NCBI RefSeq assembly: GCF_030269685.1
Contig: NZ_BSTT01000014.1
Span: forward strand, 62,001 to 126,000
DNA length: 64,000 nt
Direction: 5' to 3'
Origin: Actinomycetospora sp. NBRC 106378
GTDB lineage: Bacteria; Actinomycetota; Actinomycetes; Mycobacteriales; Pseudonocardiaceae
In this document: in pieces, positions 52,693 to 64,000 of the stretch
How positions within the stretch are numbered: the stretch's first letter is position 1
Layout of the letters: the number at the start of each line of letters is the position of its first letter
Position numbers and translations under genes: made by a program
The notes under the pieces: generated by a model
Seen by the model: the letters and a program-made list of their open reading frames with translations, nothing else
The model's database searches: none
What the model was told of the DNA's origin: nothing

Positions 52693-53490
52693 TCACCAGG
52701 CGACGGCACCGCCGTCGACCAGCAGGTTCGCCCCCGTGACGTAGGAGGCCGCCCCGCCGAGCAGGAACACGACCGGCCCGACGAGCTCCTCGGTCTCGGC
52801 CATGCGCCCGAGCGGGATGTCCTTCGTGTACGCCTGCACGTGCGGCCACACGTCGGGGTGCTTCGCCATCGGCGTCGCCGTGTAGCCGGGGCTGACGGCG
52901 TTCACCCGCACCCCGCGGTCGGCCCACTCCAGCGCGAGCGACGTCGTCAGGTGCAGCACGCCCGCCTTCGCGGAGTTGTAGTGCACCTGGGACAGGCCGC
53001 GGTTGGCGATCGAGGCCGAGATCGACCCGATGTTGACGATGCTCCCGCCGCCGTGCGCGAGCATCGCCGCGCCCTCGGCCTGGCAGCACGTGAAGACGCC
53101 GGTGAGGTTGACGTCGATCAGCCGCTGCCACTGGGCGCGTGGCATCTCCTCGGCCGGGGCGTTGTCGTGCACCCCCGCGCAGTTGACGGCGTGACGGAGC
53201 GGGCCCAGCTCGTCCTCGGTACGTCGGACGGCGGTGGCCATCGCGTCGGCGTCGGCGACGTCGGCCTCGATCGCCAGGGCGCGGCGCCCGAGACCCTCGA
53301 TGGCGGCCACGGTCTCCTTGAGGCCGTCGGCGGAGACGTCCAGGCACGCCACGTCGGCGCCGAACTCGGCGAGACCGAGGGCCACGCGGGCCCCGATCCC
53401 GCCGGCGGCTCCGGTCACCAGCGCGACGGGGGCACCGTCGACGTCCAGTCGGAACGACGGGGCGGGACCCGCCGGGAAGGGAGCCGTCAC
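52693..53490 (-). CDS. Short-chain dehydrogenase/reductase in the catabolic island
   Basis: 265 aa classical SDR: VTGAAGGIGARVALGLAE, CLDVSADG (Asp after beta-2, so NAD preferred), NCAGVHDNAPAEE, NIGSISASIA and YNSAKAG with the catalytic Tyr/Lys, SPGYTATPM. GTG start overlaps the flavin monooxygenase stop in a GTGA, so both are one operon behind the operator at 54732. Likely dehydrogenates the alcohol or diol made by the monooxygenase, as carveol-dehydrogenase-type SDRs do in limonene degradation (inference). Confidence 0.9.
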   Translation of the reverse strand: MTAPFPAGPAPSFRLDVDGAPVALVTGAAGGIGARVALGLAEFGADVACLDVSADGLKETVAAIEGLGRRALAIEADVADADAMATAVRRTEDELGPLRHAVNCAGVHDNAPAEEMPRAQWQRLIDVNLTGVFTCCQAEGAAMLAHGGGSIVNIGSISASIANRGLSQVHYNSAKAGVLHLTTSLALEWADRGVRVNAVSPGYTATPMAKHPDVWPHVQAYTKDIPLGRMAETEELVGPVVFLLGGAASYVTGANLLVDGGAVAW

Positions 53491-54674
53491 GCCTGCGACA
53501 CCTGACGCGACTCGCGCTCGGCGGCGTGCTTCGCGGTGAAGGCGTTGATCGCGTCCCACTGCTTCGCGGCCAGCGGGTCGCGCACGCTGCGGGTCCAGGC
53601 CTCGTTCGCGAGCAGGCGACGGTCGGTCTTCTTGAACTTCGGGATCACGTGGTTCGCGAACAGGTGGTAGTGGTGCAGCGTCGCCTCCCACGGCGCCCAG
53701 TTGTGGGCGAACATCAGGTAGGCGCCGAACCCGCCCTTGGACTGCTCCTCGAGACGCTCGATCTGGTTGACGGCGTCGTCGACGGTGCCGATGACGCCCA
53801 TACCCGACTCGATGACGAACTCGATGCGCTCCTTGGTGTTCTCACCCTGGACGCCGAGCTGTGGCGCGGCCGCGGTGTGCTGCAGGTAGTCGAACCACTC
53901 GTTGATGCCGTACTCGACGTCCTTGATCGCCTGGTCCTTGGTGTCGGCGATGTGCATCGGGCCGACGAGGCGCCAGCCCTCGCGGCTGGGCTCGGTGCCG
54001 TGCTCGTTCGCCATCTCCTGGACGACGTCCCAGTGCATCGCCAGGGCGTCGAACCCGGCGGCGCTCATCGTCGCGCCGATCGAGATCATGCCGAGGCCGT
54101 GCTTGCCCACCAGGCGCGGTCCGGACGGCGAGACGATCGCGGCGGTGGCGACCTCCGGGTGCGGCCAGGAGTAGGCGTCCATCTGCAGGCGCGCGTCGAC
54201 CAGCTTGTAGCGACCGGTGTCGATCGAGATCGGCTCGTCGCTGGTCAGCAGGTGCATGAGGACGTCGACGTCCTGCTCGAGCGCGGCGCGCGCGTCGGCC
54301 GGGTCGAGGCCGAACATGCCGGCGTCGGTGGCGAGGGCGCCGGGGCCGACACCGAGGATCGTGCGGCCACGGGTGAGGTGGTCGAGCAGGATCAGGCGGT
54401 CCGCGATGTGGAACGGGTTGTGGTACGGCAGCGACATGACGCCGGTGCCGAGCTTGATGTGCTTGGTCACCTGGGCGACGTGGGCGATGAACAGCATCGG
54501 GTCGCCGATGAGTTCGACGCCGCACGAGTGGTGCTCGCCGAACCAGGCCTCGTCGAAGCCCATCTCGTCGAGGCGCTGCACGAGCTCGACGTCGCGCTGC
54601 AGCGAGTAGGTCGGGTTCTGGCCCACCGGCACGTGGTGCGGGGGCAGGAAGATGCCGAAGCGCATACGGGACAC
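53487..54674 (-). CDS. LLM-class flavin-dependent monooxygenase, limonene 1,2-monooxygenase-like
   Basis: 395 aa bacterial-luciferase-like TIM barrel. N-terminus RFGIFLPPHHVPVGQNPT, FDEAWFGEHHSCGVELIGDPMLFIAHVA, LGTGVMSLPYHNPFHIADRLILLDHLTRGRTILGVGPGALATDA (landmarks at about 40-65 and 76-118), matching the limonene-monooxygenase branch rather than F420 enzymes. It needs reduced flavin from a reductase not seen here. GTG 54674 has GAGGAG 6 nt upstream. The island operator lies at 54732-54749. Confidence 0.87.
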   Translation of the reverse strand: MSRMRFGIFLPPHHVPVGQNPTYSLQRDVELVQRLDEMGFDEAWFGEHHSCGVELIGDPMLFIAHVAQVTKHIKLGTGVMSLPYHNPFHIADRLILLDHLTRGRTILGVGPGALATDAGMFGLDPADARAALEQDVDVLMHLLTSDEPISIDTGRYKLVDARLQMDAYSWPHPEVATAAIVSPSGPRLVGKHGLGMISIGATMSAAGFDALAMHWDVVQEMANEHGTEPSREGWRLVGPMHIADTKDQAIKDVEYGINEWFDYLQHTAAAPQLGVQGENTKERIEFVIESGMGVIGTVDDAVNQIERLEEQSKGGFGAYLMFAHNWAPWEATLHHYHLFANHVIPKFKKTDRRLLANEAWTRSVRDPLAAKQWDAINAFTAKHAAERESRQVSQA

Positions 54675-54731: not shown

Positions 54732-54749
54732 TTCAACGTACCTGTTGAC
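54732..54749. promoter_or_regulatory. Island operator copy 1: TTCAAC-N6-GTTGAC
   Basis: 11 of 12 half-site bases match GTCAAC-N6-GTTGAC, the sequence found at 59403 and 61315. It lies 57 bp upstream of the flavin-monooxygenase start. On the minus strand it reads AGTCAACAGGTACGTTGAA, sharing 16 of 19 bases with the 59.4-kb copy. Confidence 0.75.
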
Positions 54750-54774
54750 TACCACAGCGGGAAGAGCTGAGGCG

Positions 54775-55270
54775 CTAGTCGTCGCTCGGACCGGGCGCAC
54801 CCGTCGACGTCGGCGGACCGGCGACGACGCCGGCCTCCCGCAGCCGTCGGACCTCGGCGGGGTCGACCCCGATCTCGTGCAGCAGGACGTCGGAATCCGC
54901 CCCGATCAGGGGCGGACCTGCGGCGGGAGCGAGAGGGGCGTCGCCGAACACGACCGGCGTCGCGACCGAGCGGACCGGTTCCCCGTCGGTCGGTCCGCCG
55001 GGGACGTCGACGAAGACGCCGGCCGCTCGGGCCTGAGGGTCGTCGATGAGATCAGCAGCGGTGTTGACCGGCGTCCACCACACGTCGTGCTCGGCGAAGA
55101 TCGTCGCCCACTCGGCCCGGGTCCGGCGCGCGAAGGCCTCGTCGAGCACGGCGACCAGGTCGGCGCCGGCCTTGCGGCGGCCACGGGCGGTGGCGAAGCG
55201 TTCGTCGTCGAGCCGCGGATCGTCGGCGGCCGCCTTGATCCCGGGCCAGTGCCGGTCGGCCTCCGCGGGA
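54775..55270 (-). pseudogene. CaiB/BaiF family III CoA-transferase remnant, 5' part missing
   Basis: About 165 C-terminal residues of a roughly 400-residue enzyme remain: ADRHWPGIKAAADDPRLDDERF, LVAVLDEAFARRTRAEWATIFAEHDVWWTPVNT, DPQARAAGVF, VATPVVFGDAPLAPAAGPPLIGADSDVLLHEIG (landmarks within about the last 160 residues). The catalytic N-terminal domain is absent. Similarity ends at about 55270, exactly where the oppositely oriented MFS remnant begins. The open frame beyond this point is only the antisense of the MFS remnant. Confidence 0.85.
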
Positions 55271-56131
55271 GTGCTGGCCCTGCCCGCCTTCCCCGTCGTC
55301 CGGCAGTCGCTCGGGGTGGTCGTCCCCGAGGCCCGACGTCGCCCCGCGTTCGCGCTGGACGCGATGGCGTCGGAGGTGTCCTTCATCGTGGGGCCCGCCG
55401 TCGGGACCGTCGCGGTGCTGGCCCTGCCGTCGACGACGGCCCTGTGGTCGGTCGGTGCGGCATTCGTCGTGGCCACTGCGGCGCTGTGGTGGCTCGACCC
55501 GGCGGTCCGCTCCGAGCCGGGGCGGACGGACCCGCCCTCGATGCGCCACTGGCTCGGGGCGCCGATGGTCACGGCGCTCGCCGCGGCGGTCGCCGCCGTG
55601 CTGGTCCTGTCGGCGACCGAGCTCGCCGCGGTCGCGGCCCTCACCGCGCGCGGAGAGACCGGATGGTGGGCCCTCGCGAACACCGTGTGGTGCCTCGCGT
55701 CGCTGGCCTGTGGCCTCGTCTACGGCGTCGCCGCGCGCCCGCCGTCGCTCCCGGTCCTGCTCGCCGGCCTCGCGCTGGGCACGGTCCCGGTCGCGTTCGG
55801 CGGGCCCTGGTGGCTGGTCGCCCTGCTGCTCGTGCCCGCCGGCGCGTTCTGCGCCCCGGCCCTGTCCTCGTCCGCCGAGGCGGTCGGGCGGCTCGCGCCG
55901 GACGGCGCCCGCGGCGTCGCGACCGGGTTGCACGGCTCGGCCATCATGCTCGGGGCCGCGCTCGCCCAGCCCCTCACCGGCGTGCTGATCGACCGGGTGT
56001 CCCCGACGGTGGCGCTGCTGGCGGCCGTCGGGATCTGCCTGGTCGTCGCCACGGGCGCGGGGGTGGCCCTCAGAGGAGAGATACCGCCCGCTCGGCCAGC
56101 AGGAACTTCCGCGCCCGACCCGATGGCGTGA
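55271..56131 (+). pseudogene. MFS transporter remnant, N-terminal third missing
   Basis: About 286 residues with roughly eight helices: LPAFPVVRQSLGVVVPEARRRPAFALDAMASEVSFIVGPAVGT corresponds to the middle of a 12-TM transporter (positions near TM4-5), and the rest runs to the normal C-terminus (GLHGSAIMLGAALAQPLTGVLIDR). No start codon, ribosome binding site or promoter precedes it; GTG 55271 is the first possible. Its stop overlaps the 3' end of the CoA ligase gene by 62 bp. Confidence 0.8.
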
Positions 56132-57758
56132 GCGGGACGTCGGCCACCGCGATCTCCGCCACGTGGCGTGGCACCTTGAATCGCGCGAGGTGCTCGGTGC
56201 ACCACGCCACGAGTACCTCGGCGTCGACCGCGTGCCCCTCGCGCGGGACGATCCAGGCCCACCCGACCTCACCCCGACGGTCGTCGGGAACGGGGACGAC
56301 GAACGCCTGGTGCACGCTCGGGTGCCGGGCGAGGACCGTCTCCACGTCGCCGGGCACCACCTGCTCGCCGCCACAGCGGTAGCTGTCCTTGGTGCGCCCG
56401 ACGAGGTGCAGGTACTCGTCGGCGTCGAGGACACCGAGGTCCCCCGTGCGCAGCCACCCTTCCGCGGTGAACGCCGCCGCCGTGGCTTCTGGGTTGCGGT
56501 AGTAACCCGCTGTCACGCCGGGTCCGCGACAGACGAGCTCGCCGATCGAGCCGTTGGGCAGGTCCTCCCCGGTCGCGGTGTCGATCACCTTGTACTCGAC
56601 CAGCCGCCCGTCCAGCGCCGGGTCGCCGGCCACGCCCGCCCGCTTCATCCGGCCGTTCGTGGTCATCCGTCGCTCGGGCGGGTCCTCGGGCCACGTGCAC
56701 GTGGTGGACGCCGTCGTCTCGCTCATCCCGTAGCCCGTGACGACCTCGCCGGGGGAGAGGACCTCGTCGATCTCCGGCCAGATGCCGTGCGGGGAGACCC
56801 CTCCCGAGGAGTAGAGGTGCGTGAGCGACGACAGGTCGCGCGGCGCCGCCCGCTGGACCCGGATGAGTTCCGCGGTCATCGTCGGGATGAGCAGGGCGTC
56901 GTCGGCGCGCTCGGCCTCGATCGCGTCGAGGATCGCCGCCGGGTCGAACGTCCGCCGCATGACCATGCAGCCGCCGACGAAGGGCACCGTCAGCAGGCCC
57001 TCGACGTAGCCGTAGACGTGGAAGAGCGGCAGCGAGAACACGACGCGGTGCGCGTCGGTGTACGCGCGGCCCCACGTCGACCCGTACGCCGTACGGAGCA
57101 GCATGTCGTGGGTGAGCTGGACCCCCTTCGGCTCGCCGGTGGTGCCGGAGGTGAACAGGATGTCGGCGACGTCGTCCGGCTCGCCGGCCGGCACGGTGAC
57201 CGGATCCGCCGTCCCCAGGCCGGCCAGCGTGGTGACGCCGGGCCGGGGGTCACCCGTCTCGTGCACGACGAGGTGGCGCAACTCGGGGGCGGCCGGCGCG
57301 GCCACGCCGCCGGTCCAGTCACCGAGGAGCTCGTCGAGCATCGTCAGGTAGTCGAGGTCGCGGAAGCGGTCCGTCGTGATCAGCACGCTCGCGTCGGAGC
57401 GGCGCACGATGAACCCGAGTTCGTCGCGACGGTTGGCCACGTTTATCGGCACCGTCACGGCCCCGAGCCGGGCGATCGCGTACCGGACCGCCACGAACTC
57501 GGCGTCGTTCGCGAGGACCACGGCCACGTGGTCACCCCGCCCGACCCCGAGGTCGCGCAGGCCGCCGGCCACCCGCGCCGACCAGTCGCGCATCTGCGCA
57601 TAGGTCCAGGTGCCGGCCTCGGTGACGACGAAGGGTCGGTCGGCGAACTCCTCGCACGCGGCGTCGAGGGCGCCCGCGAGGGTCCGTGGCACCCAGGTCG
57701 GGTGCCGCTTCTCGATCGCGGCCCGCCGCTCCGTCGCGGAGCGCGGGTGGACGGTCAC
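56070..57758 (-). CDS. AMP-forming acyl-CoA ligase in the catabolic island
   Basis: 562 aa ANL ligase. P-loop ILFTSGTTGEPKGVQLTH, A5 GYGMSETTA, hinge GDLGVLDADEYLHLVGRTKDSYRCGGEQV, and a C-terminal conserved block (PLTPSGRARKFLL) in which the usual catalytic lysine of GK is replaced by R-A-R-K, leaving a lysine two residues on. It would activate the hydroxy acid released from the lactone. GTG start overlaps the BVMO stop (GTGA), so ligase and BVMO are one operon. Confidence 0.88.
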   Translation of the reverse strand: MTVHPRSATERRAAIEKRHPTWVPRTLAGALDAACEEFADRPFVVTEAGTWTYAQMRDWSARVAGGLRDLGVGRGDHVAVVLANDAEFVAVRYAIARLGAVTVPINVANRRDELGFIVRRSDASVLITTDRFRDLDYLTMLDELLGDWTGGVAAPAAPELRHLVVHETGDPRPGVTTLAGLGTADPVTVPAGEPDDVADILFTSGTTGEPKGVQLTHDMLLRTAYGSTWGRAYTDAHRVVFSLPLFHVYGYVEGLLTVPFVGGCMVMRRTFDPAAILDAIEAERADDALLIPTMTAELIRVQRAAPRDLSSLTHLYSSGGVSPHGIWPEIDEVLSPGEVVTGYGMSETTASTTCTWPEDPPERRMTTNGRMKRAGVAGDPALDGRLVEYKVIDTATGEDLPNGSIGELVCRGPGVTAGYYRNPEATAAAFTAEGWLRTGDLGVLDADEYLHLVGRTKDSYRCGGEQVVPGDVETVLARHPSVHQAFVVPVPDDRRGEVGWAWIVPREGHAVDAEVLVAWCTEHLARFKVPRHVAEIAVADVPLTPSGRARKFLLAERAVSLL

Positions 57759-59371
57759 CGGGCCCCGACGAGGCTGCCGGTGAACGTGAAGCCCTCGTAG
57801 CCGTCGGCCACGACCTGCTCGAGGGTCCGCCGGTACCCGCGCACCCCACCCACGTAGGGCATGAACACGCGCGGCTTCCCGGGCACCTCGGCGCCCATGT
57901 AGTACGACGCGGCCCTCGGGTAGAGCGTGGCCGCCGCGCGCTCGTTGACGTGGTCGACCCACCGCGCCTCGGCCTGCTCCGACGCCTCGATCTCGTCCGC
58001 GCCCTGCTCGGCCGCATGGTCGAGCAGCCCGGCGATCCAGTCGACGTGCGCCTCGATCGAGAGCAGCACGTTCGACAGCAGCGACGGGCTGCCGGGGCCG
58101 GCGATGACGAAGAAGTTGGGGAACCCCGACACCCCGACGCCGAGGTAGGTCCGCGGCCCGGCGTTCCAGTGCTCGCGCAGCGTCCGCCCGCCCCGCCCGA
58201 CGATCTCCGGCTTGAGCAGCGCCCCCGTCATGGCGTCGAAGCCGGTGGCGAAGACGATCGTGTCGAGCTCGATCTCCTCCGCGGTCGTCCGGATGCCCCT
58301 CTCGGTGATCCGGTCGAGCGGTGTCTCACGCATGTCGACGAGGTCGACGTTCTCGCGGTTGAACGTCTCGAAGTAGCCCGAGTCGACCGGCGGGCGCTTC
58401 GCGCCGAAGGGGTAGCCGCGGGGCATGAGCCGCTCCGCCGTCGCCGGGTCGTCCACCTTCTCGGCGATCTTCGCCCGGATGAAGTCGGCCGCCGTGTCGT
58501 TGGCCTCCTCGTCGAGCATGAGGTCGTAGAAGGCGAGCAGGAACCCGAAGCCCGCCGTCGTCCACTGCTCCTCGTAGAGGGCACGGCGCTCCTCGGGCGA
58601 CACCGCGACCGCCGACTGCTTGTTGGGCTTGAACCCCAGACCCGAGGGCGACCAGCGGGCCCGCTCGCGCCGGTCGGCGTAGGTGGCCTTGACCTCGGCG
58701 TCGCGCTCGTCGGAGAGCGGCGCGTTGTTGGCCGGGATCGAGAAGTTGGGAGTGCGCTGGAAGACGGTGAGGCGCTCGACCTGGCGGGCGAGCACGGGGA
58801 TGAGCTGCGTGCCCGAGGAGCCGGTGCCGATGACGCCGACCCGCTGCCCGGAGAGGTCGACCTCCTCATGCGGCCAGGCCCCGGTGTGCAGGATGCGACC
58901 GCGGAAGTCCTCCTGGCCCTCCAGCTGCGGCTGCTTGGTGACCGACAGCTGGCCGGTGGCCATGACGAGGTACCGCGCGCTCCACGTGCCGGCCGAGGCG
59001 CCCTCGGTGGTGACCGTCCAGCGGTGGGCGTCCTCGTCGTACGCCGCGCGCGTCATCCGCGTCGACAGGTGCACGTCGCGGCGCAGGTCGAAGCGCTCGG
59101 CCACGTGGTCGACGTAGCGCAGGATCTCGGGCTGGGTGGCGTAGCGCTCGCTCCAGCGCCACTCCTGCTCGAGCTCCGGGGAGAAGGAGAGCGAGTAGTC
59201 GTAGCTCTCGACGTCGCACCGCGCGCCGGGGTAGCGGTTGACGTACCAGACCCCGCCGAGCCCGTCGTTGGCCTCGACCACCGCGACCTCAAGGCCGCGC
59301 TCGCGGAACGTGTGCAGGGTGCGGAGGCCGGCGAAGCCGGCGCCCACCACGAGCATGTCGACCTGGCGCAT
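57755..59371 (-). CDS. Type I Baeyer-Villiger monooxygenase
   Basis: 538 aa, typical length. FAD motif GAGFAGL (10-16), NRYPGARCDVESYDYS (45-60), the BVMO fingerprint FRGRILHTGAWP (156-167; FxGxxxHxxxWP), and NADP motif GTGSSGTQ (182-189). It inserts oxygen next to a ketone to give an ester or lactone with NADPH and O2. ATG 59371 is fixed by a near-ideal leaderless promoter: TTGACG, 17-bp spacer, TAATCT, 7 bp, ATG. The -35 box overlaps the left half-site of the island operator. Confidence 0.95.
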   Translation of the reverse strand: MRQVDMLVVGAGFAGLRTLHTFRERGLEVAVVEANDGLGGVWYVNRYPGARCDVESYDYSLSFSPELEQEWRWSERYATQPEILRYVDHVAERFDLRRDVHLSTRMTRAAYDEDAHRWTVTTEGASAGTWSARYLVMATGQLSVTKQPQLEGQEDFRGRILHTGAWPHEEVDLSGQRVGVIGTGSSGTQLIPVLARQVERLTVFQRTPNFSIPANNAPLSDERDAEVKATYADRRERARWSPSGLGFKPNKQSAVAVSPEERRALYEEQWTTAGFGFLLAFYDLMLDEEANDTAADFIRAKIAEKVDDPATAERLMPRGYPFGAKRPPVDSGYFETFNRENVDLVDMRETPLDRITERGIRTTAEEIELDTIVFATGFDAMTGALLKPEIVGRGGRTLREHWNAGPRTYLGVGVSGFPNFFVIAGPGSPSLLSNVLLSIEAHVDWIAGLLDHAAEQGADEIEASEQAEARWVDHVNERAAATLYPRAASYYMGAEVPGKPRVFMPYVGGVRGYRRTLEQVVADGYEGFTFTGSLVGAR

Positions 59372-60341
59372 GGTCCCGAGATTAGGTCGCACCCCCGACG
59401 ACGTCAACGTCGCTGTTGACTCGCGCGGTAGCGTCCGCGGCGTAGACTTCGAGCACCTGATCTACGAGAAGGAGGGTCGGATCGCGACCCTCACGCTCAA
59501 TCGCCCGCACCGCGGCAACGCGTTGTGCCGCGCGCTGCGCGACGAGATGGACCTCGTCCTCGACGACCTCGATTCCGACGACGACACCCGCGTGCTCGTC
59601 GTGAAGTCCAACGGCAAGAACTTCTGCACCGGGTACGACCTCACCGAGTGGGCCTATCTCTGGGGCACCGCCGAGACGCCGAGCCGGCCCGAGGACGCCC
59701 GTCCGCACCGGCGCGCCCCGATCTTCTCCCGCCGCGAGTTCCACGAGTCGCGCGAGCGCTGGATGCGGCTCTGGCGCATCCGCCAGGCGACCGTCGGGAT
59801 CGTGAAGGGCGCCTGTGTGGCGGGTGGGCTCGACCTCGCCGGCGTGCTCGACATCGTCTTCGCCGCCGAGGACGCCCGCTTCGGCCAGCCCGAGGCCCGC
59901 ACCATGGGCGAGATCCACATGTTCGGGATGTGGCCGGTCCACCTCGGCATGCGCAAGACCAAGGAGTGGCTGTTCACCGGCGACGAGATGACCGGGATCG
60001 AGGCCGCCGAGCTGGGCCTCGCCAACAAGGCCGTCCCCGCCGACGAGGTCGAGGCCGTCGCGTACGCGTACGCCGAGCGCGTCGCGAACGTGCCGCTCGA
60101 GATGATCTACGCGCACAAGGAGTCGACGAACCGCTGGTGGGATGCCATGGGCATCACCGCCGCGATCGCCGCGGCCAACGACGCGGACGCCATGGCCATC
60201 GCCGGGCCGGCGATGGCCGACTTCGAGCGCATCCAGCGTGCGTCCGGGGTGCGCGCGGCCGTCGAGGACCGCGACGCCCCGTTCAAGGAGCACCGCACCT
60301 ACTGGGACGCCTACCAGGCGGGTGGTTCCTCGTCTTCGTGA
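59370..60341 (+). CDS. Enoyl-CoA hydratase/isomerase family protein (large crotonase)
   Basis: Up to 323 aa. Crotonase motifs YEKEGRIATLTLNRPHRGNAL, VKSNGKNFCTGYDL, and GACVAGGLDLAGVLDIVFAAEDARFGQPE. The insertion around 105-145 (WAYLWGTAETPSRPEDARPHRRAPIFSRREFHESRERW) makes it longer than usual hydratases. The N-terminus is uncertain: family alignment would start near 59440, but there is no ATG, GTG or TTG there; the only in-frame ATG (59370) overlaps the divergent BVMO start. CTG 59457, 8 bp after TAGACT, is another possibility. Confidence 0.85.
   Translation: MVPRLGRTPDDVNVAVDSRGSVRGVDFEHLIYEKEGRIATLTLNRPHRGNALCRALRDEMDLVLDDLDSDDDTRVLVVKSNGKNFCTGYDLTEWAYLWGTAETPSRPEDARPHRRAPIFSRREFHESRERWMRLWRIRQATVGIVKGACVAGGLDLAGVLDIVFAAEDARFGQPEARTMGEIHMFGMWPVHLGMRKTKEWLFTGDEMTGIEAAELGLANKAVPADEVEAVAYAYAERVANVPLEMIYAHKESTNRWWDAMGITAAIAAANDADAMAIAGPAMADFERIQRASGVRAAVEDRDAPFKEHRTYWDAYQAGGSSSS
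59379..59420 (-). promoter_or_regulatory. BVMO promoter with island operator copy 2
   Basis: On the minus strand TTGACG (59407-59402) and TAATCT (59384-59379) are 17 bp apart. The operator GTCAAC-GTCGCT-GTTGAC spans 59403-59420, so a bound regulator would cover the -35 box. The right half-site TTGACT faces the divergent crotonase and could be its -35. Confidence 0.85.
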
Positions 60342-60378
60342 CAGCAAAGCCCTGTCGGCGTGCTCCCATCGTGAGGTC

Positions 60379-60408
60379 CCTTCCCGACGACGGGTCGGCG
60401 CGGCTCGC
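60379..60408. repeat. Dispersed repeat CCTTCCCGACGACGGGTCGG, copy
   Basis: 30-bp match to 39433-39462 with two differences (positions 12 and 22). It lies 37 bp after the crotonase stop, next to the sixth 56-bp element, in the convergent gap between the two crotonase genes. Confidence 0.7.
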
Positions 60409-60451
60409 CGTCGTCACCGGCGCCGAGTCGGAGAGGGGGATCGGCGTCCGG

Positions 60452-60507
60452 TGAGGGTCACGGAGGGCAGGTCCCGGGGCCCGCGGACCTGCCGGGCGTG
60501 CTTCTCG
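60452..60507. repeat. 56-bp palindromic element, copy 6
   Basis: Ends TGAGGGTCACGGAGGGCAGG and a right arm of type CCTGCCGGGCGTGCTTCTCG, again exactly 56 bp. The arms pair over about 15 of 20 positions. It stops 9 bp before the 3' end of the convergent crotonase gene. Confidence 0.85.
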
Positions 60508-60516
60508 GGGAGGAGT

Positions 60517-61284
60517 TCAGCGCCCCGACCACCGGGGTGCGCGCTTCTCGCCGAACGCCCGCGCCCCCTCCCGGGCGTCCTCGGTGGCCTTGATCGCGAC
60601 CAGCTCGGCCTCCTGGCGGGCCCACGCCTCGTCGGCGGGCAGGTCGGCGGCGGCCAGCATCCGCTTCGTCGCCGCGAGGGCCAGCGGCGCGTTCCGGGCG
60701 ATGCGGGCGGCGAGTTCCAGTGCGGCGGACGCGGCGGACCCGGGGTCGACGAGCCGGTTGACCAGCCCCCACCCGTGGGCGTCGACCGCGGAGAAGCGGT
60801 CTCCGGTCAGCGCCAGCTCCGCCGCCACGGAGCGCGGCACACGGTGGGGGAGTCGGAGCAGTCCGCCCGACCCGGCGATCAGCCCGATCCCCACCTCCGG
60901 CAACCCGAACACGGCCTCGGCGGACGCCACGACGAGGTCGCACGCCAGCACGAGCTCGCACCCGCCGGCCAGGGCGAACCCCTCGACCGCGGCGATCAGG
61001 GGCTTGGCGGGCGGCGCCTGGGTGAGCCCGCCGAACCCGCGGCCGGGCACCTCGGGGGCGTCGCCGTCGAGGAAGGCCCGCAGGTCCATCCCGCTGCAGA
61101 AGGTCCCGCCGGCGCCGGTGAGCACGCCGACGGACAACGACGGGTCGGCGTCGAACTCGTCGAGCGTGGCCGCGATGTGCCGGCTCATGGCCCCGTCGAC
61201 CGCGTTGCGCTTGGCGGGACGGTCCAGGGTGATGAGCAGGACCCCGTCGGTCGGCTTCTCCGTGCGCACACCGGTGCTCTCCAC
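60517..61284 (-). CDS. Enoyl-CoA hydratase
   Basis: 255 aa, canonical crotonase: GVLLITLDRPAKRNAVDGAM, oxyanion segments GAGGTFCSGMDLRAF and EGFALAGGCELVLACDLVVAS, PEVGIGLIAGSGGLLRLP carrying a catalytic Glu, and the ending FGEKRAPRWSGR. GTG 61284 follows CAGGCT (61291-61296, minus strand) by 6 bp, with TTGACT 17 bp further upstream overlapping the island operator, so it is leaderless and probably repressor-controlled. Confidence 0.93.
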   Translation of the reverse strand: MESTGVRTEKPTDGVLLITLDRPAKRNAVDGAMSRHIAATLDEFDADPSLSVGVLTGAGGTFCSGMDLRAFLDGDAPEVPGRGFGGLTQAPPAKPLIAAVEGFALAGGCELVLACDLVVASAEAVFGLPEVGIGLIAGSGGLLRLPHRVPRSVAAELALTGDRFSAVDAHGWGLVNRLVDPGSAASAALELAARIARNAPLALAATKRMLAAADLPADEAWARQEAELVAIKATEDAREGARAFGEKRAPRWSGR

Positions 61285-61314
61285 CGGGCCAGCCTGGACA
61301 TCCCCGGACGGCTA

Positions 61315-61332
61315 GTCAACACTGCAGTTGAC
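61315..61332. promoter_or_regulatory. Island operator copy 3: GTCAAC-N6-GTTGAC
   Basis: Perfect 6-bp arms, spacer ACTGCA, in the 63-bp gap between the divergent crotonase and SnoaL-hydrolase-dehydrogenase operons. The left half overlaps the -35 TTGACT of the crotonase. The right half is 15 bp before the GTG of the other operon, so one regulator could control both. Confidence 0.85.
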
Positions 61333-61347
61333 GACAGGGAGGTCACC

Positions 61348-62121
61348 GTGGACATCCACCCGATGGGCGCGCTGATGCGGCGCTTCGTCGTGGACTGGCT
61401 CGACCGGGCGGACGCCGAGGTCCCCCCTCAGATCATGGCGCCGGACTACGCCATCGACATCGCCGGGGTGCAGATGCCCGGGCGCGACGCGTACCTCGAG
61501 GCCACCAGCGCCCAGCTCGCCCGTTTCCCGGGGCTCACCGTCACCGTCCACGACGCGCTCTACACGACCGACGGCCACGCCGCACTGCGCTTCACCGAGC
61601 ACGGCGCGTCGGAGCGGGGTGGAGCGGCGGCATGGCGCGGCATCGGGGTCTTCCGCGCCGAGCACGGCGTCCTCGTGCACAACGCCACCGAGGAGGACTA
61701 CCTCGGCCGGCGCCGTCAGTTGCTCTCCGGCACCCCGGACCCCGTCGACCCGCCGATGGTCGCCCCGTGGACCGAGCCGCCCGCCGACCCCGACCCGGAG
61801 GCCGAGAAGGCCGTCCGCACCTGGCTCGACGCCGGGGCGCCCGCCCGGTCGGGGATCACCTACGACGACGGCGCCGCGCCGGGCGACCTCCTCGGGTCGC
61901 CGTCGATCGCGGTCGACGCCCTGGTCGTCGCCGGACGACGGGTCGCGGTCCACGGGGTCGCCCGCGGGAGCTACGTCGGCGGCCTGCCCGACGCTCCCGA
62001 GCCCGACGGCGCGGACGTCACCCTCGGCCTCGCCGCCCTCCTCGACGTCGCTCCCGACGGCACCCTCACCGGCCACGTGGTCCGCGACCGGCTCGGCGTC
62101 TACCGGGCCCTCACCCGATGA
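61348..62121 (+). CDS. Double SnoaL/NTF2-like fold protein
   Basis: 257 aa. Residues about 1-125 are a SnoaL-like cone fold (MRRFVVDWLDRADAEVPPQIMAPDYAIDIAG, FPGLTVTVHDALYTTDGHAALRFTEHG). After a Pro/Asp linker (about 132-150), residues 150-257 appear to be a second, shorter unit (AVRTWLDAG...VAVHGVARGSYVGG). The fold is shared with limonene-1,2-epoxide hydrolase and polyketide cyclases; no catalytic residues can be assigned with certainty. GTG 61348 has AGGGAGG at 61336-61342. ATGA overlap with the hydrolase gene. Confidence 0.78.
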   Translation: MDIHPMGALMRRFVVDWLDRADAEVPPQIMAPDYAIDIAGVQMPGRDAYLEATSAQLARFPGLTVTVHDALYTTDGHAALRFTEHGASERGGAAAWRGIGVFRAEHGVLVHNATEEDYLGRRRQLLSGTPDPVDPPMVAPWTEPPADPDPEAEKAVRTWLDAGAPARSGITYDDGAAPGDLLGSPSIAVDALVVAGRRVAVHGVARGSYVGGLPDAPEPDGADVTLGLAALLDVAPDGTLTGHVVRDRLGVYRALTR

Positions 62122-63167
62122 CCTCCCCGGAACGCGACGACGGCACGCTGCTCCCGTCCAGTGGGAGCAGCTCGCCATCGTCGACCGACCCCGATGTCAG
62201 CGGTGCGCCACGGCGCGCACCCGATGTCAGTGGAGGGCCACCGCTGACCGGGCCGACCCTCGCCCCCGAGGCCGCCGACCTCCTCCGTCGCCTCACCGAG
62301 CTGGGCCTCCGGCCGTACGCCGAGGTCGGGGTGCTCGCCGCCCGGCACGCCGTCGAGGCCGCGCGATGGATGCAGGGCGAGAAGGTCGCGGTCGCCACGA
62401 CCGACCTCCTCGTCGACGGCGGGGACGGCCGCCTCCCGGCCCGGGTCTACCGCCCCACGGCCGCGCCGAGCACGGAGGTCCCGCTCGTCGTCTGGTTCCA
62501 CGGCGGCGGCTGGGTCTGCGGCAGCGTCGCGTCCGTCGACCGTCCGTGCCGGGCCATCGCGCGTGCTGCGGGCGCCGTCGTCGTCTCCGTCGAGTACCGA
62601 CGCCCGCCCGAGACGCCCTTCCCGGGGCCGCTCGAGGACGCCGTCGCCGCGACCGCCTGGTGTGCCGACCACGCCGCCGAGCTCGGTGCGCACCCCGGAC
62701 GGGTCGTGATCGGCGGGGACAGCGCCGGTGGCAACCTCGCGGCGGCCGCCGCCCGGTGGCTGCGCGACCGGGTCGCGCGCCAGGTGCTCGTCTATCCCGT
62801 GCTCGCGCCGCCCGATCCGGCCGGCTACCCGGCGCACAACGACGGGTACCTGCTCACCCACGCCGACATGGTGTGGTTCTGGGAGCACCACCTCGACGGG
62901 CGCCCCGCGACACCGGACGCCGCCCCGCTGCTCGCGCCCGACGACGAGCTCCGCGGACTCCCGTCCGGCGCGATCGCCGTCGCCGGCTTCGACCCCCTGC
63001 ACGACGAGGGCGTCGCCTACGCGGAGCGGTTGCGCGCGGCGGGCGTCGACGTCGAGCTGCGCGACTGGCCGGACATGATCCACGGCTTCCTCGGCATGGC
63101 CGGCGAGCTGCCGCAGACGGGCTCCCTCATCACCTGGATCGCCGCACAGATCGGGAGAAGCACATGA
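62118..63167 (+). CDS. Alpha/beta hydrolase of the hormone-sensitive-lipase (family IV) type
   Basis: 349 aa. Oxyanion motif WFHGGGWVCGS, nucleophile GGDSAGGNLA, acid in GFDPLHDEG, and histidine in DMIHGFLGM. Monoterpene lactone hydrolases of rhodococci are of this family, which fits a lactone-opening step after the BVMO (inference). The first about 50 residues are Ser/Pro/Gly-rich and encoded by two copies of a dispersed repeat (62195-62241), giving PDVSGAP and PDVSGGP. Start ATG overlaps the previous stop. Confidence 0.92.
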   Translation: MTSPERDDGTLLPSSGSSSPSSTDPDVSGAPRRAPDVSGGPPLTGPTLAPEAADLLRRLTELGLRPYAEVGVLAARHAVEAARWMQGEKVAVATTDLLVDGGDGRLPARVYRPTAAPSTEVPLVVWFHGGGWVCGSVASVDRPCRAIARAAGAVVVSVEYRRPPETPFPGPLEDAVAATAWCADHAAELGAHPGRVVIGGDSAGGNLAAAAARWLRDRVARQVLVYPVLAPPDPAGYPAHNDGYLLTHADMVWFWEHHLDGRPATPDAAPLLAPDDELRGLPSGAIAVAGFDPLHDEGVAYAERLRAAGVDVELRDWPDMIHGFLGMAGELPQTGSLITWIAAQIGRST

Positions 63168-64000
63168 GCGTCAGCGTGGCGGGCGGAGCGACGGGCCGGG
63201 TGGCCGTCATCGGAGGCGGGACGATGGGCCGCGGGATCGCCTACGTGTTCGCCGCCGCGGGCCTGCCGACCACGGTCGTCGAGCCGGACGGGGAACGCGG
63301 GAGCGCGTTGATCGGCGAGCTCGCCGAGCGCGCCCGCACCGGTGCGGACAAGGGCAAGCTCGACCCGACGGCCGCCGACCGCCTCCCGGAGCTCCTCGAC
63401 GTCGTCCCCGACGTGAGCGACCTCGCCGCCGGCCTCGACCTCGTCGTCGAGTCCGTCCCCGAGATCCCGGCCCTCAAGGCGGAGGTCCTGACGGCGGCCG
63501 AGGCGCGGGAGCCCCACCTGCTCGCCTCCAACACGAGCTCGATCTCGATCGACGACCTGGCCGGCACCCTCGCCCGCCCGCAGTCGTTCCTGGGGATGCA
63601 CTTCTTCAACCCGGTGTGGTCGCTGCCGCTGGTCGAGGTCGTCCGCGGCCGGGCCAGCGACGAGCGGGCCATCACCACCGCGCAGGACTACGCGACGACG
63701 ATCGGCAAGGACTCGATCGTGGTCCGGGACGTCCCGGGCTTCGCCACGAGCCGACTGGACAACATCGCCGCGTTCGAGGCGATGCGGATGGTCGAGGAGG
63801 AGGTCGCGACGGCGGCGGACATCGACAAGGCGGCCGTGCTCGCCTACGGACACCCGATCGGTCCGCTGCGTCTCTCCGACGTCGTCGGGCTCGACGTCCG
63901 GCTCGACATCGCGCGGCACCTCTCGACCGTGTACGGCGAGCGCTACGCCGCTCCGGCGATCCTCGAGCGCCTCGTCGAGCAGGGGCACCTCGGGCGCAAG
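63164..64000 (+). CDS. 3-hydroxyacyl-CoA dehydrogenase, cut by the window edge
   Basis: At least 279 aa. NAD motif VIGGGTMGRGIAYVFAAAG, SNTSSISIDDLAG, the catalytic histidine in GMHFFNPV, and VRDVPGFATSRL, GPLRLSDVVGLDVRL of the C-terminal dimer domain. It oxidises 3-hydroxyacyl-CoA in beta-oxidation. ATGA overlap with the hydrolase gene makes it the third gene of the operon. The stop is outside the window. Confidence 0.94.
   Translation, partial: MSVSVAGGATGRVAVIGGGTMGRGIAYVFAAAGLPTTVVEPDGERGSALIGELAERARTGADKGKLDPTAADRLPELLDVVPDVSDLAAGLDLVVESVPEIPALKAEVLTAAEAREPHLLASNTSSISIDDLAGTLARPQSFLGMHFFNPVWSLPLVEVVRGRASDERAITTAQDYATTIGKDSIVVRDVPGFATSRLDNIAAFEAMRMVEEEVATAADIDKAAVLAYGHPIGPLRLSDVVGLDVRLDIARHLSTVYGERYAAPAILERLVEQGHLGRK

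What the first reader, a model, noticed from the sequence alone, without database searches (positions are those of the whole stretch)
54732..61332. One 18-bp operator at three promoters defines a local catabolic regulon
GTCAAC-N6-GTTGAC occurs at 59403-59420 and 61315-61332 with identical spacing, and as TTCAAC-N6-GTTGAC at 54732-54749. All three are in upstream regions of island operons: the flavin monooxygenase/SDR operon, the BVMO/ligase operon with the divergent crotonase, and the divergent crotonase and SnoaL/hydrolase/dehydrogenase operons. At two sites a half-site overlaps a well-placed -35 box (TTGACG-N17-TAATCT for BVMO; TTGACT-N17-CAGGCT for the 61284 crotonase), which predicts repression. 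The AGTCAACAGNNACGTTGA form is shared by two copies. No regulator gene is in the window, so it should lie beyond 64 kb.
Basis: seen in the sequence. Interest (0 to 1): 0.82.

Follow-up and report, generated by a model that had tools for sequence, protein, structure and literature searches.

The report
TetR repressor's four-site catabolic regulon
Four copies of one short palindromic DNA site lie at neighbouring gene groups that probably break down a ketone-like compound, and they are most likely bound by a TetR-type repressor encoded just beyond the window, many of whose relatives in other bacteria sit beside the same site.

Summary
GTCAAC-N6-GTTGAC occurs at only two places in the 6.31-Mb genome (genus Actinomycetospora), both here. 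Its core TCAAC-N6-GTTGA occurs at 6 places, 4 within 9.3 kb: 54732, 59403, 61315 and a fourth at 64058, just past the window end. The fourth heads an operon of acyl-CoA dehydrogenase, acyl-CoA ligase and a TetR gene (66805-67467): the predicted regulator. Of 18 genus genomes, the 5 with this TetR have 2-3 exact sites and the 13 without have none. In relatives, sites stay upstream of the same genes despite rearrangement. Of 61 loci encoding this TetR subfamily, 46 carry the core (165 copies at spacer 6, at most 4 at any other); 0 of 36 loci of more distant TetRs do. Presence tracks the recognition helix: 46 of 55 with [D/N]RA[S/T], 0 of 6 with DRAA/DRAN. Sites overlap -35 or -10 elements at several promoters, so repression by occlusion is likely. 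Binding, effector and substrate are untested. The palindrome alone is not specific: it also occurs in 124 of 364 family genomes without a close TetR.

The parts
54732..54749 (.). operator 1 (TTCAACGTACCTGTTGAC), 66 nt upstream of the LLM monooxygenase start used here (54665, - strand)
   Evidence: a site is kept upstream of the orthologous gene in L024, L026, L027, L054, L056, L058, L059; absent with the gene in L025
52693..53451 (-). SDR, second gene of the LLM unit (approximate start)
   Evidence: Pfam adh_short_C2
53487..54665 (-). luciferase-like (LLM) flavin monooxygenase
   Evidence: Pfam Bac_luciferase, E 5e-44
56070..57761 (-). acyl-CoA ligase (AMP-binding), downstream of the BVMO
   Evidence: Pfam AMP-binding
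57755..59371 (-). Baeyer-Villiger monooxygenase
   Evidence: best solved match steroid monooxygenase 4ap3, 652 bits; phenylacetone monooxygenase next
59379..59407 (-). BVMO promoter: -35 TTGACG (inside operator 2), N17, -10 TAATCT, then 7 nt to the ATG, suggesting a leaderless transcript
   Evidence: TAAYCT at N17 kept in five Actinomycetospora genomes, 6-7 nt before the ATG in four of them
59403..59420 (.). operator 2 (GTCAACGTCGCTGTTGAC), between the divergent BVMO and crotonase genes
   Evidence: exact match, one of two in the genome; site kept upstream of the BVMO in L024, L025, L026, L027, L053, L054, L056, L058, L059
59442..60341 (+). crotonase/enoyl-CoA hydratase family protein; first codon at the conserved position is GTA here
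   Evidence: Pfam ECH_1; GTG in L026
60517..61284 (-). crotonase/enoyl-CoA hydratase
   Evidence: Pfam ECH_1, E 6e-53; NCBIfam PRK08252 over its cut-off
61315..61332 (.). operator 3 (GTCAACACTGCAGTTGAC), between the divergent crotonase and SnoaL genes; its left half is the -35 of TTGACT-N17-CAGGCT
   Evidence: exact match; kept in L024, L025, L026 with N17-CAGGCT and in L027 upstream of SnoaL
61348..62121 (+). SnoaL-like protein
   Evidence: Pfam SnoaL_2
62118..63167 (+). alpha/beta hydrolase, hormone-sensitive-lipase type
   Evidence: Pfam Abhydrolase_3; NCBIfam LipP1 297 bits, below its cut-off of 350
63164..64000 (+). 3-hydroxyacyl-CoA dehydrogenase (runs on to 64033). Beyond the window: operator 4 at 64058-64075, acyl-CoA dehydrogenase 64088-65278, acyl-CoA ligase 65278-66777, TetR regulator 66805-67467, all + strand

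Best explanation
The palindrome (consensus about YRTCAACR-N4-YGTTGAYR) is the operator of the TetR-family repressor encoded at window coordinate 66805-67467, the last gene of the operon headed by the fourth site. The repressor dimer binds four sites at the promoters of: the LLM monooxygenase/SDR unit; the divergent BVMO-ligase and crotonase units; the divergent crotonase and SnoaL-hydrolase-dehydrogenase units; and the acyl-CoA dehydrogenase-ligase-tetR operon, which gives negative autoregulation. At the BVMO and 61284-crotonase promoters a half-site is the -35 hexamer; at the acyl-CoA dehydrogenase promoter the first GT of the site completes the -10 box; RNA polymerase is thus excluded. A pathway intermediate, probably an acyl-CoA thioester, releases the repressor and switches on oxidation of a ketone or alcohol to an ester, hydrolysis, CoA activation and beta-oxidation. 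Shown here by sequence: the sites, their rarity and clustering, the TetR gene, its co-occurrence with the sites, conservation, promoter overlap. Inferred: binding, repression, effector, substrate, order of steps.
For: Exact motif at 2 places in 6.31 Mb, both here; core at 6 places, 4 here. TetR gene in the operon of the fourth site. Genus: 5 of 5 genomes with the TetR have 2-3 exact sites, 0 of 13 without (Fisher P 1.2e-4). Sites kept upstream of the LLM, BVMO, SnoaL and acyl-CoA dehydrogenase orthologs across rearranged clusters with varying spacers. Subfamily: core in 46 of 61 loci, 165 copies at spacer 6 and 0-4 at any other spacer from 0 to 15, against 0 of 36 loci of more distant TetRs. 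In 13 of 61 loci a site lies within 225 bp upstream of the TetR match. Within the subfamily sites go with S/T after DRA/NRA in the recognition helix, 46 of 55, and are absent with DRAA/DRAN, 0 of 6. TA stands four bases before the site in 15 of 120 site orientations, background 0.8%.
Against: No binding or expression data. 15 of 61 subfamily loci have no site, among them L080 and L057 with 54-64% identical TetRs (L057 has lost the cluster; several others are short contigs or the DRAA branch). The exact palindrome occurs in 142 of 390 family genomes: 18 of 26 with a TetR match at E 1e-40 and 124 of 364 without (my tally). Eight motif neighbourhoods in six genomes without such a TetR hold none closer than 34% identity, so other regulators use like sites. 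The relaxed core occurs 1-6 times in each of the 13 genus genomes without the TetR. The 61 loci were found through the TetR, so only the genus test is free of that choice.
Confidence: 0.9

Rival explanations
1. The palindromes are not operators but back-to-back -35 hexamers (TTGAC on each strand) of divergent promoters that happen to lie six bases apart.
For: TTGAC is a -35 hexamer; two of the sites here lie between divergent genes; two half-sites have a well placed -10.
Against: Spacer 6 is fixed: 165 copies against 0-4 for any other spacer. Only 20 of 102 half-site orientations have a TANNNT at N16-N18. At the acyl-CoA dehydrogenase promoter the site overlaps the -10 instead. The exact sites follow TetR presence in the genus.
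Confidence: 0.04
2. The sites are a real operator, but of some regulator other than the TetR at 66805, for example one encoded elsewhere in the genome.
For: Similar palindromes occur in genomes and neighbourhoods without this TetR; no binding was tested.
Against: Perfect co-occurrence in 18 genus genomes; TetR gene inside an operon headed by a site; the same operator beside subfamily TetRs in two phyla with otherwise different gene sets; correlation with the recognition helix.
Confidence: 0.05
3. The motif is a chance palindrome picked out by eye.
For: 22 places with up to one mismatch exist in the genome, most of the GTCGAC type.
Against: Exact pattern only here, conserved at orthologous promoters in relatives while spacers differ.
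Confidence: 0.01

Closest known systems
KstR2 (Rv3557c), TetR repressor of a steroid catabolic regulon
   Different: Operator AnCAAGnnCTTGnT, 14 bp (PMC3068626, passages); 22% identity.
BkaR (Rv2506), TetR repressor of branched-chain keto-acid genes
   Same: Autoregulated TetR with a conserved palindrome at a local cluster holding acyl-CoA genes (PMC3920632, passages).
PfmR of Thermus thermophilus (3vpr)
   Different: About 25% identity; its operator was not looked up here.
EdcR, TetR repressor of estradiol degradation genes
   Same: TetR with a palindrome overlapping -10 boxes of catabolic promoters (PMC8700777, passages).
   Different: Operator TnnCnnTACnAnTnGTAnnGnnA.

Membership tests
TetR family of transcriptional regulators | TetR_N DNA-binding domain | tested here: met
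   PF00440 45.8 bits, cut-off 24; TetR fold in the model of the A. soli ortholog, pLDDT 88.5
TetR family of transcriptional regulators | Palindromic operator at its own operon (autoregulation) | tested here: met
   At sequence level only: operator 4 heads the operon whose last gene is tetR; 13 of 61 loci have a site within 225 bp upstream of tetR
TetR family of transcriptional regulators | Repression relieved by a ligand bound in the C-terminal domain | not testable with these tools
   Domain TetR_C_24 present; ligand unknown
KstR2 | Operator AnCAAGnnCTTGnT | tested here: not met
   Sites here are TCAAC-N6-GTTGA against the published motif
KstR2 | Orthologues share over 50% identity with the M. 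tuberculosis protein (PMC3068626) | tested here: not met
   22% in the structural alignment with 4w97
KstR2 | Regulon of the last steroid rings (ipdAB and others) | not tested
   No search for ipdAB was made; island genes were named by Pfam, NCBIfam and PDB matches

The most novel reading that the evidence does not exclude
One TetR subfamily, marked by DRA[S/T] in its recognition helix, has kept the same TCAAC-N6-GTTGA operator from Actinomycetota to Pseudomonadota while its effector domain and target genes diversified: a modular switch for CoA-dependent catabolic clusters. Genomes with two such TetRs near sites (two in L064; L066 and L102 in one Amycolatopsis genome) would then either cross-regulate or discriminate by spacer and flank, and the site-less DRAA branch would have moved to another operator.
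Probability: 0.6. Interest if true: 0.55.

Novelty: new member of a known kind. Interest (0 to 1): 0.45.

Why it matters
It gives a regulator, an operator and target promoters for an uncharacterised catabolic pathway, and a sequence handle (operator plus recognition-helix letters) for finding like regulons in many uncharacterised clusters of actinomycetes and proteobacteria. It makes effector and substrate directly testable and could supply a biosensor part. The circuit itself is an ordinary TetR repressor circuit.

Tried and rejected
Relaxed core as a genome marker: TCAAC-N6-GTTGA is present 1-6 times in each of the 13 genus genomes lacking the TetR. Many of the listed off-island copies read TCAACC...GGTTGA; C after TCAAC is rare in island-type sites (1-6%). 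The list was cut, so this is an impression of the part shown.

Reverse test, motif cluster predicts this TetR: failed. Eight neighbourhoods from six genomes without a TetR match at E 1e-40 (L147-L154, chosen by me from the places) held no TetR closer than 34% identity.

Completeness of the subfamily count: I first counted 45 of 55 loci, having fetched 20 kb around only 20 of the 26 TetR-bearing family genomes. On checking I fetched the other 6: 1 of 6 has sites, so the count became 46 of 61. L068-L074 were left out as they repeat loci already in the set; the own locus is counted apart (4 sites). The near/far split is my identity cut (34% and more against 33% and less).

A fifth own-genome target: C8:173372 (CTCAACGGACGTGTTGAC), about 120 bp upstream of a sigma-70-type gene; not among the matches listed for the other four TetR-bearing genus genomes; taken as chance.

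Literature: (853 papers) was too noisy to use. (listings) showed no TetR with this operator, letters TCAACN or NGTTGA with TetR family, found 0 papers. I read passages only, of PMC3068626, PMC3920632, PMC4482099, PMC8700777, PMC12882949 and PMC13273656. The motif logos of PMC4482099 are images and could not be read, so a mycobacterial match there is not excluded. Most subscription journals are not in the library.

Terpenoid substrate: not supported. The BVMO is closest to steroid and phenylacetone monooxygenases; the LLM protein matches alkanal monooxygenase and, weakly, 3,6-diketocamphane 1,6-monooxygenase (61 bits).

Full report
Observation. In the window's own genome (G000, 6.31 Mb, window = C14:62001-126000) the exact pattern GTCAAC-N6-GTTGAC occurs at 2 places, both in the window; with one mismatch allowed at 22 places, against 2 for the reversed control. 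The core TCAAC-N6-GTTGA occurs at 6 places, 4 of them between 54732 and 64075. The fourth, GTCAACAGTGATGTTGAA at 64058-64075, lies 58 bases past the window end.

Regulator. The fourth site stands 12 bases before an acyl-CoA dehydrogenase gene, which is followed by an acyl-CoA ligase and a TetR-family gene at 66805-67467. The genome has 102 TetR_N matches; none lies in the window.

Genus test. Of 18 genomes of the genus, 5 (own included) encode the TetR at E 1e-30 or better, the other four at 82-98% identity. Those five have 2, 3, 3, 3 and 2 exact sites; the other thirteen have none (Fisher P 1.2e-4). Three of the thirteen genomes are incomplete (59, 84, 83%). The reversed control pattern is found once in one of the five and once in one of the thirteen. 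The relaxed core does not separate the groups: 4-7 places in the five, 1-6 in the thirteen. The genus name comes from contigs of equal length in a named collection: Actinomycetospora soli, chiangmaiensis and endophytica.

Promoter conservation. In the four genus relatives (L024-L027) and in five of seven loci of family genus g30 (L053, L054, L056, L058, L059), sites lie upstream of orthologs of the island genes, although these are reordered, inverted or partly lost. Of the other two, L055 is a 6.5-kb contig with one site about 100 bp downstream of tetR, and L057 has the TetR without the cluster and no site. Four of the seven g30 loci are on contigs that a named collection calls Pseudonocardia. 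At the BVMO promoter TTGACG-N17-TAAYCT is kept in all five Actinomycetospora genomes, 6-7 bases before the ATG in four of them; L027 has a longer leader. At the acyl-CoA dehydrogenase promoter a TANNGT box shares its GT with the operator in the own genome, L024-L027 and L053, but not in L056. TTGAC[T/G]-N17-CAGGCT before the 61284-type crotonase is kept in the own genome, L024, L025 and L026. Overall TA stands four bases before the site in 15 of 120 site orientations (60 sites), background 0.8%; a TANNNT at N16-N18 from a half-site is found in 20 of 102 half-site orientations. At the 54732 and SnoaL promoters no convincing core promoter was recognised. In two relatives a fifth promoter, before an SDR gene, has a site (L155, L156).

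Subfamily test. Around TetR proteins of 34% identity or more, 61 loci (1.08 Mb) were examined. The core occurs 165 times at spacer 6, in 46 of 61 loci, and 0 to 4 times at any other spacer from 0 to 15. By identity of the TetR: 4 of 4 at 80% or more, 13 of 15 at 50-80%, 5 of 10 at 40-50%, 24 of 32 below 40%. In 36 loci of TetRs at 33% or less the count at spacer 6 is 0. In 13 of 61 a site lies within 225 bp upstream of the TetR match. These loci were found through the TetR, so this shows association, not that a site predicts the TetR.

Tree and helix. A quick maximum-likelihood tree of 92 proteins (before the last six loci were added) puts the 56 related proteins, 46 operator-positive with the own one, and the 36 others, 0 positive, on two sides of a branch, SH-aLRT 99; it warns of long branches. 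In the recognition helix the 56 have R61 and A62 throughout and S or T at 63 in 54; the 36 have K61 in 31, G62 in 35 and A63 in 32. Within the 61 loci, sites occur with DRAS (25 of 30), DRAT (20 of 24) and NRAS (1 of 1), not with DRAA (0 of 5) or DRAN (0 of 1). The DRAA proteins are probably one branch, so this is few independent events. Named members with sites include Klenkia, Geodermatophilus, Conexibacter, Nocardioides, Mycolicibacterium, Sphingobium, Novosphingobium, Pseudomonas typographi, Paraburkholderia xenovorans LB400 and a Rhodoferax.

Limits. The exact palindrome is found in 142 of 390 genomes of the family: by my tally 18 of 26 with a TetR match at E 1e-40 and 124 of 364 without (Fisher P 5e-4). 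Eight motif neighbourhoods from six genomes of the latter kind had no TetR closer than 34%. The palindrome alone therefore does not identify this regulator. Neither binding nor expression was tested.

Function. The genes beside the sites fit oxidation of an alcohol or ketone (SDRs, LLM monooxygenase), Baeyer-Villiger conversion to an ester, hydrolysis (hormone-sensitive-lipase type), CoA activation (two ligases) and beta-oxidation (acyl-CoA dehydrogenase, two crotonases, 3-hydroxyacyl-CoA dehydrogenase). The order of steps is inference and the substrate unknown. The model of the A. soli ortholog (pLDDT 88.5) is closest in fold to KstR2, 2ibd and PfmR, with FadR, AibR and DarR further down. By their entry titles FadR and AibR bind acyl-CoA, DarR binds c-di-AMP. 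With two ligases in the regulon an acyl-CoA is the likeliest effector, but this is a guess.

Comparison. It works like KstR2 or BkaR: an autoregulated TetR with a few palindromes at local catabolic promoters. It is not KstR2: the operator differs and identity is 22%. None of the listings showed a TetR with this operator, in an open-access library that misses most subscription journals.

Noticed in passing
59442-59444: The crotonase at 59442-60341 has GTA where the ortholog in L026 has GTG as first codon; no ATG/GTG/TTG in frame lies close by upstream (the next is TTG at 59238). The gene is absent from L024 and L025, so it may be decaying here.
   Followed up: partly
54775-56131: A C-terminal part of a CaiB-type CoA-transferase and a partial MFS transporter lie back to back between operator 1 and the ligase; the MFS part is kept at 80-82% in L024-L026.
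   Followed up: partly
G001, G003, G007, G008, G012, G013, G015, G016 (places): A pair of TCAAC-N6-GTTGA boxes about 45 bp apart, one of them always TCAACCGCAAGGTTGA or its complement, recurs in these eight genomes, all lacking the TetR: probably another regulator's site.
   Followed up: no
L147 (G103:C2:54001-74000): Five copies of a longer palindrome, about RTCAACRYGCGBGTTGAC, in a region of many small genes, perhaps a mobile element with its own repressor.
   Followed up: partly
L099:1616, 7903, 10312, 14470, 14504, 17090: In Novosphingobium resinovorum the sites lie beside riboflavin kinase and riboflavin-synthesis genes, two LLM monooxygenases, a ligase, a TonB receptor and a thiolase: the regulon there may include flavin supply.
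   Followed up: partly
L064:10932-17931; L067:8462-14547: Two subfamily TetRs within 7 kb; L064 has three sites, L067 (DRAA type) none.
   Followed up: partly
G000:C14:44360-44375 (18 kb before the window): A lone TCAACCGAAAGGTTGA lies about 850 bp from a different TetR gene (C14:43377-43517) and may be that one's own operator.
   Followed up: no
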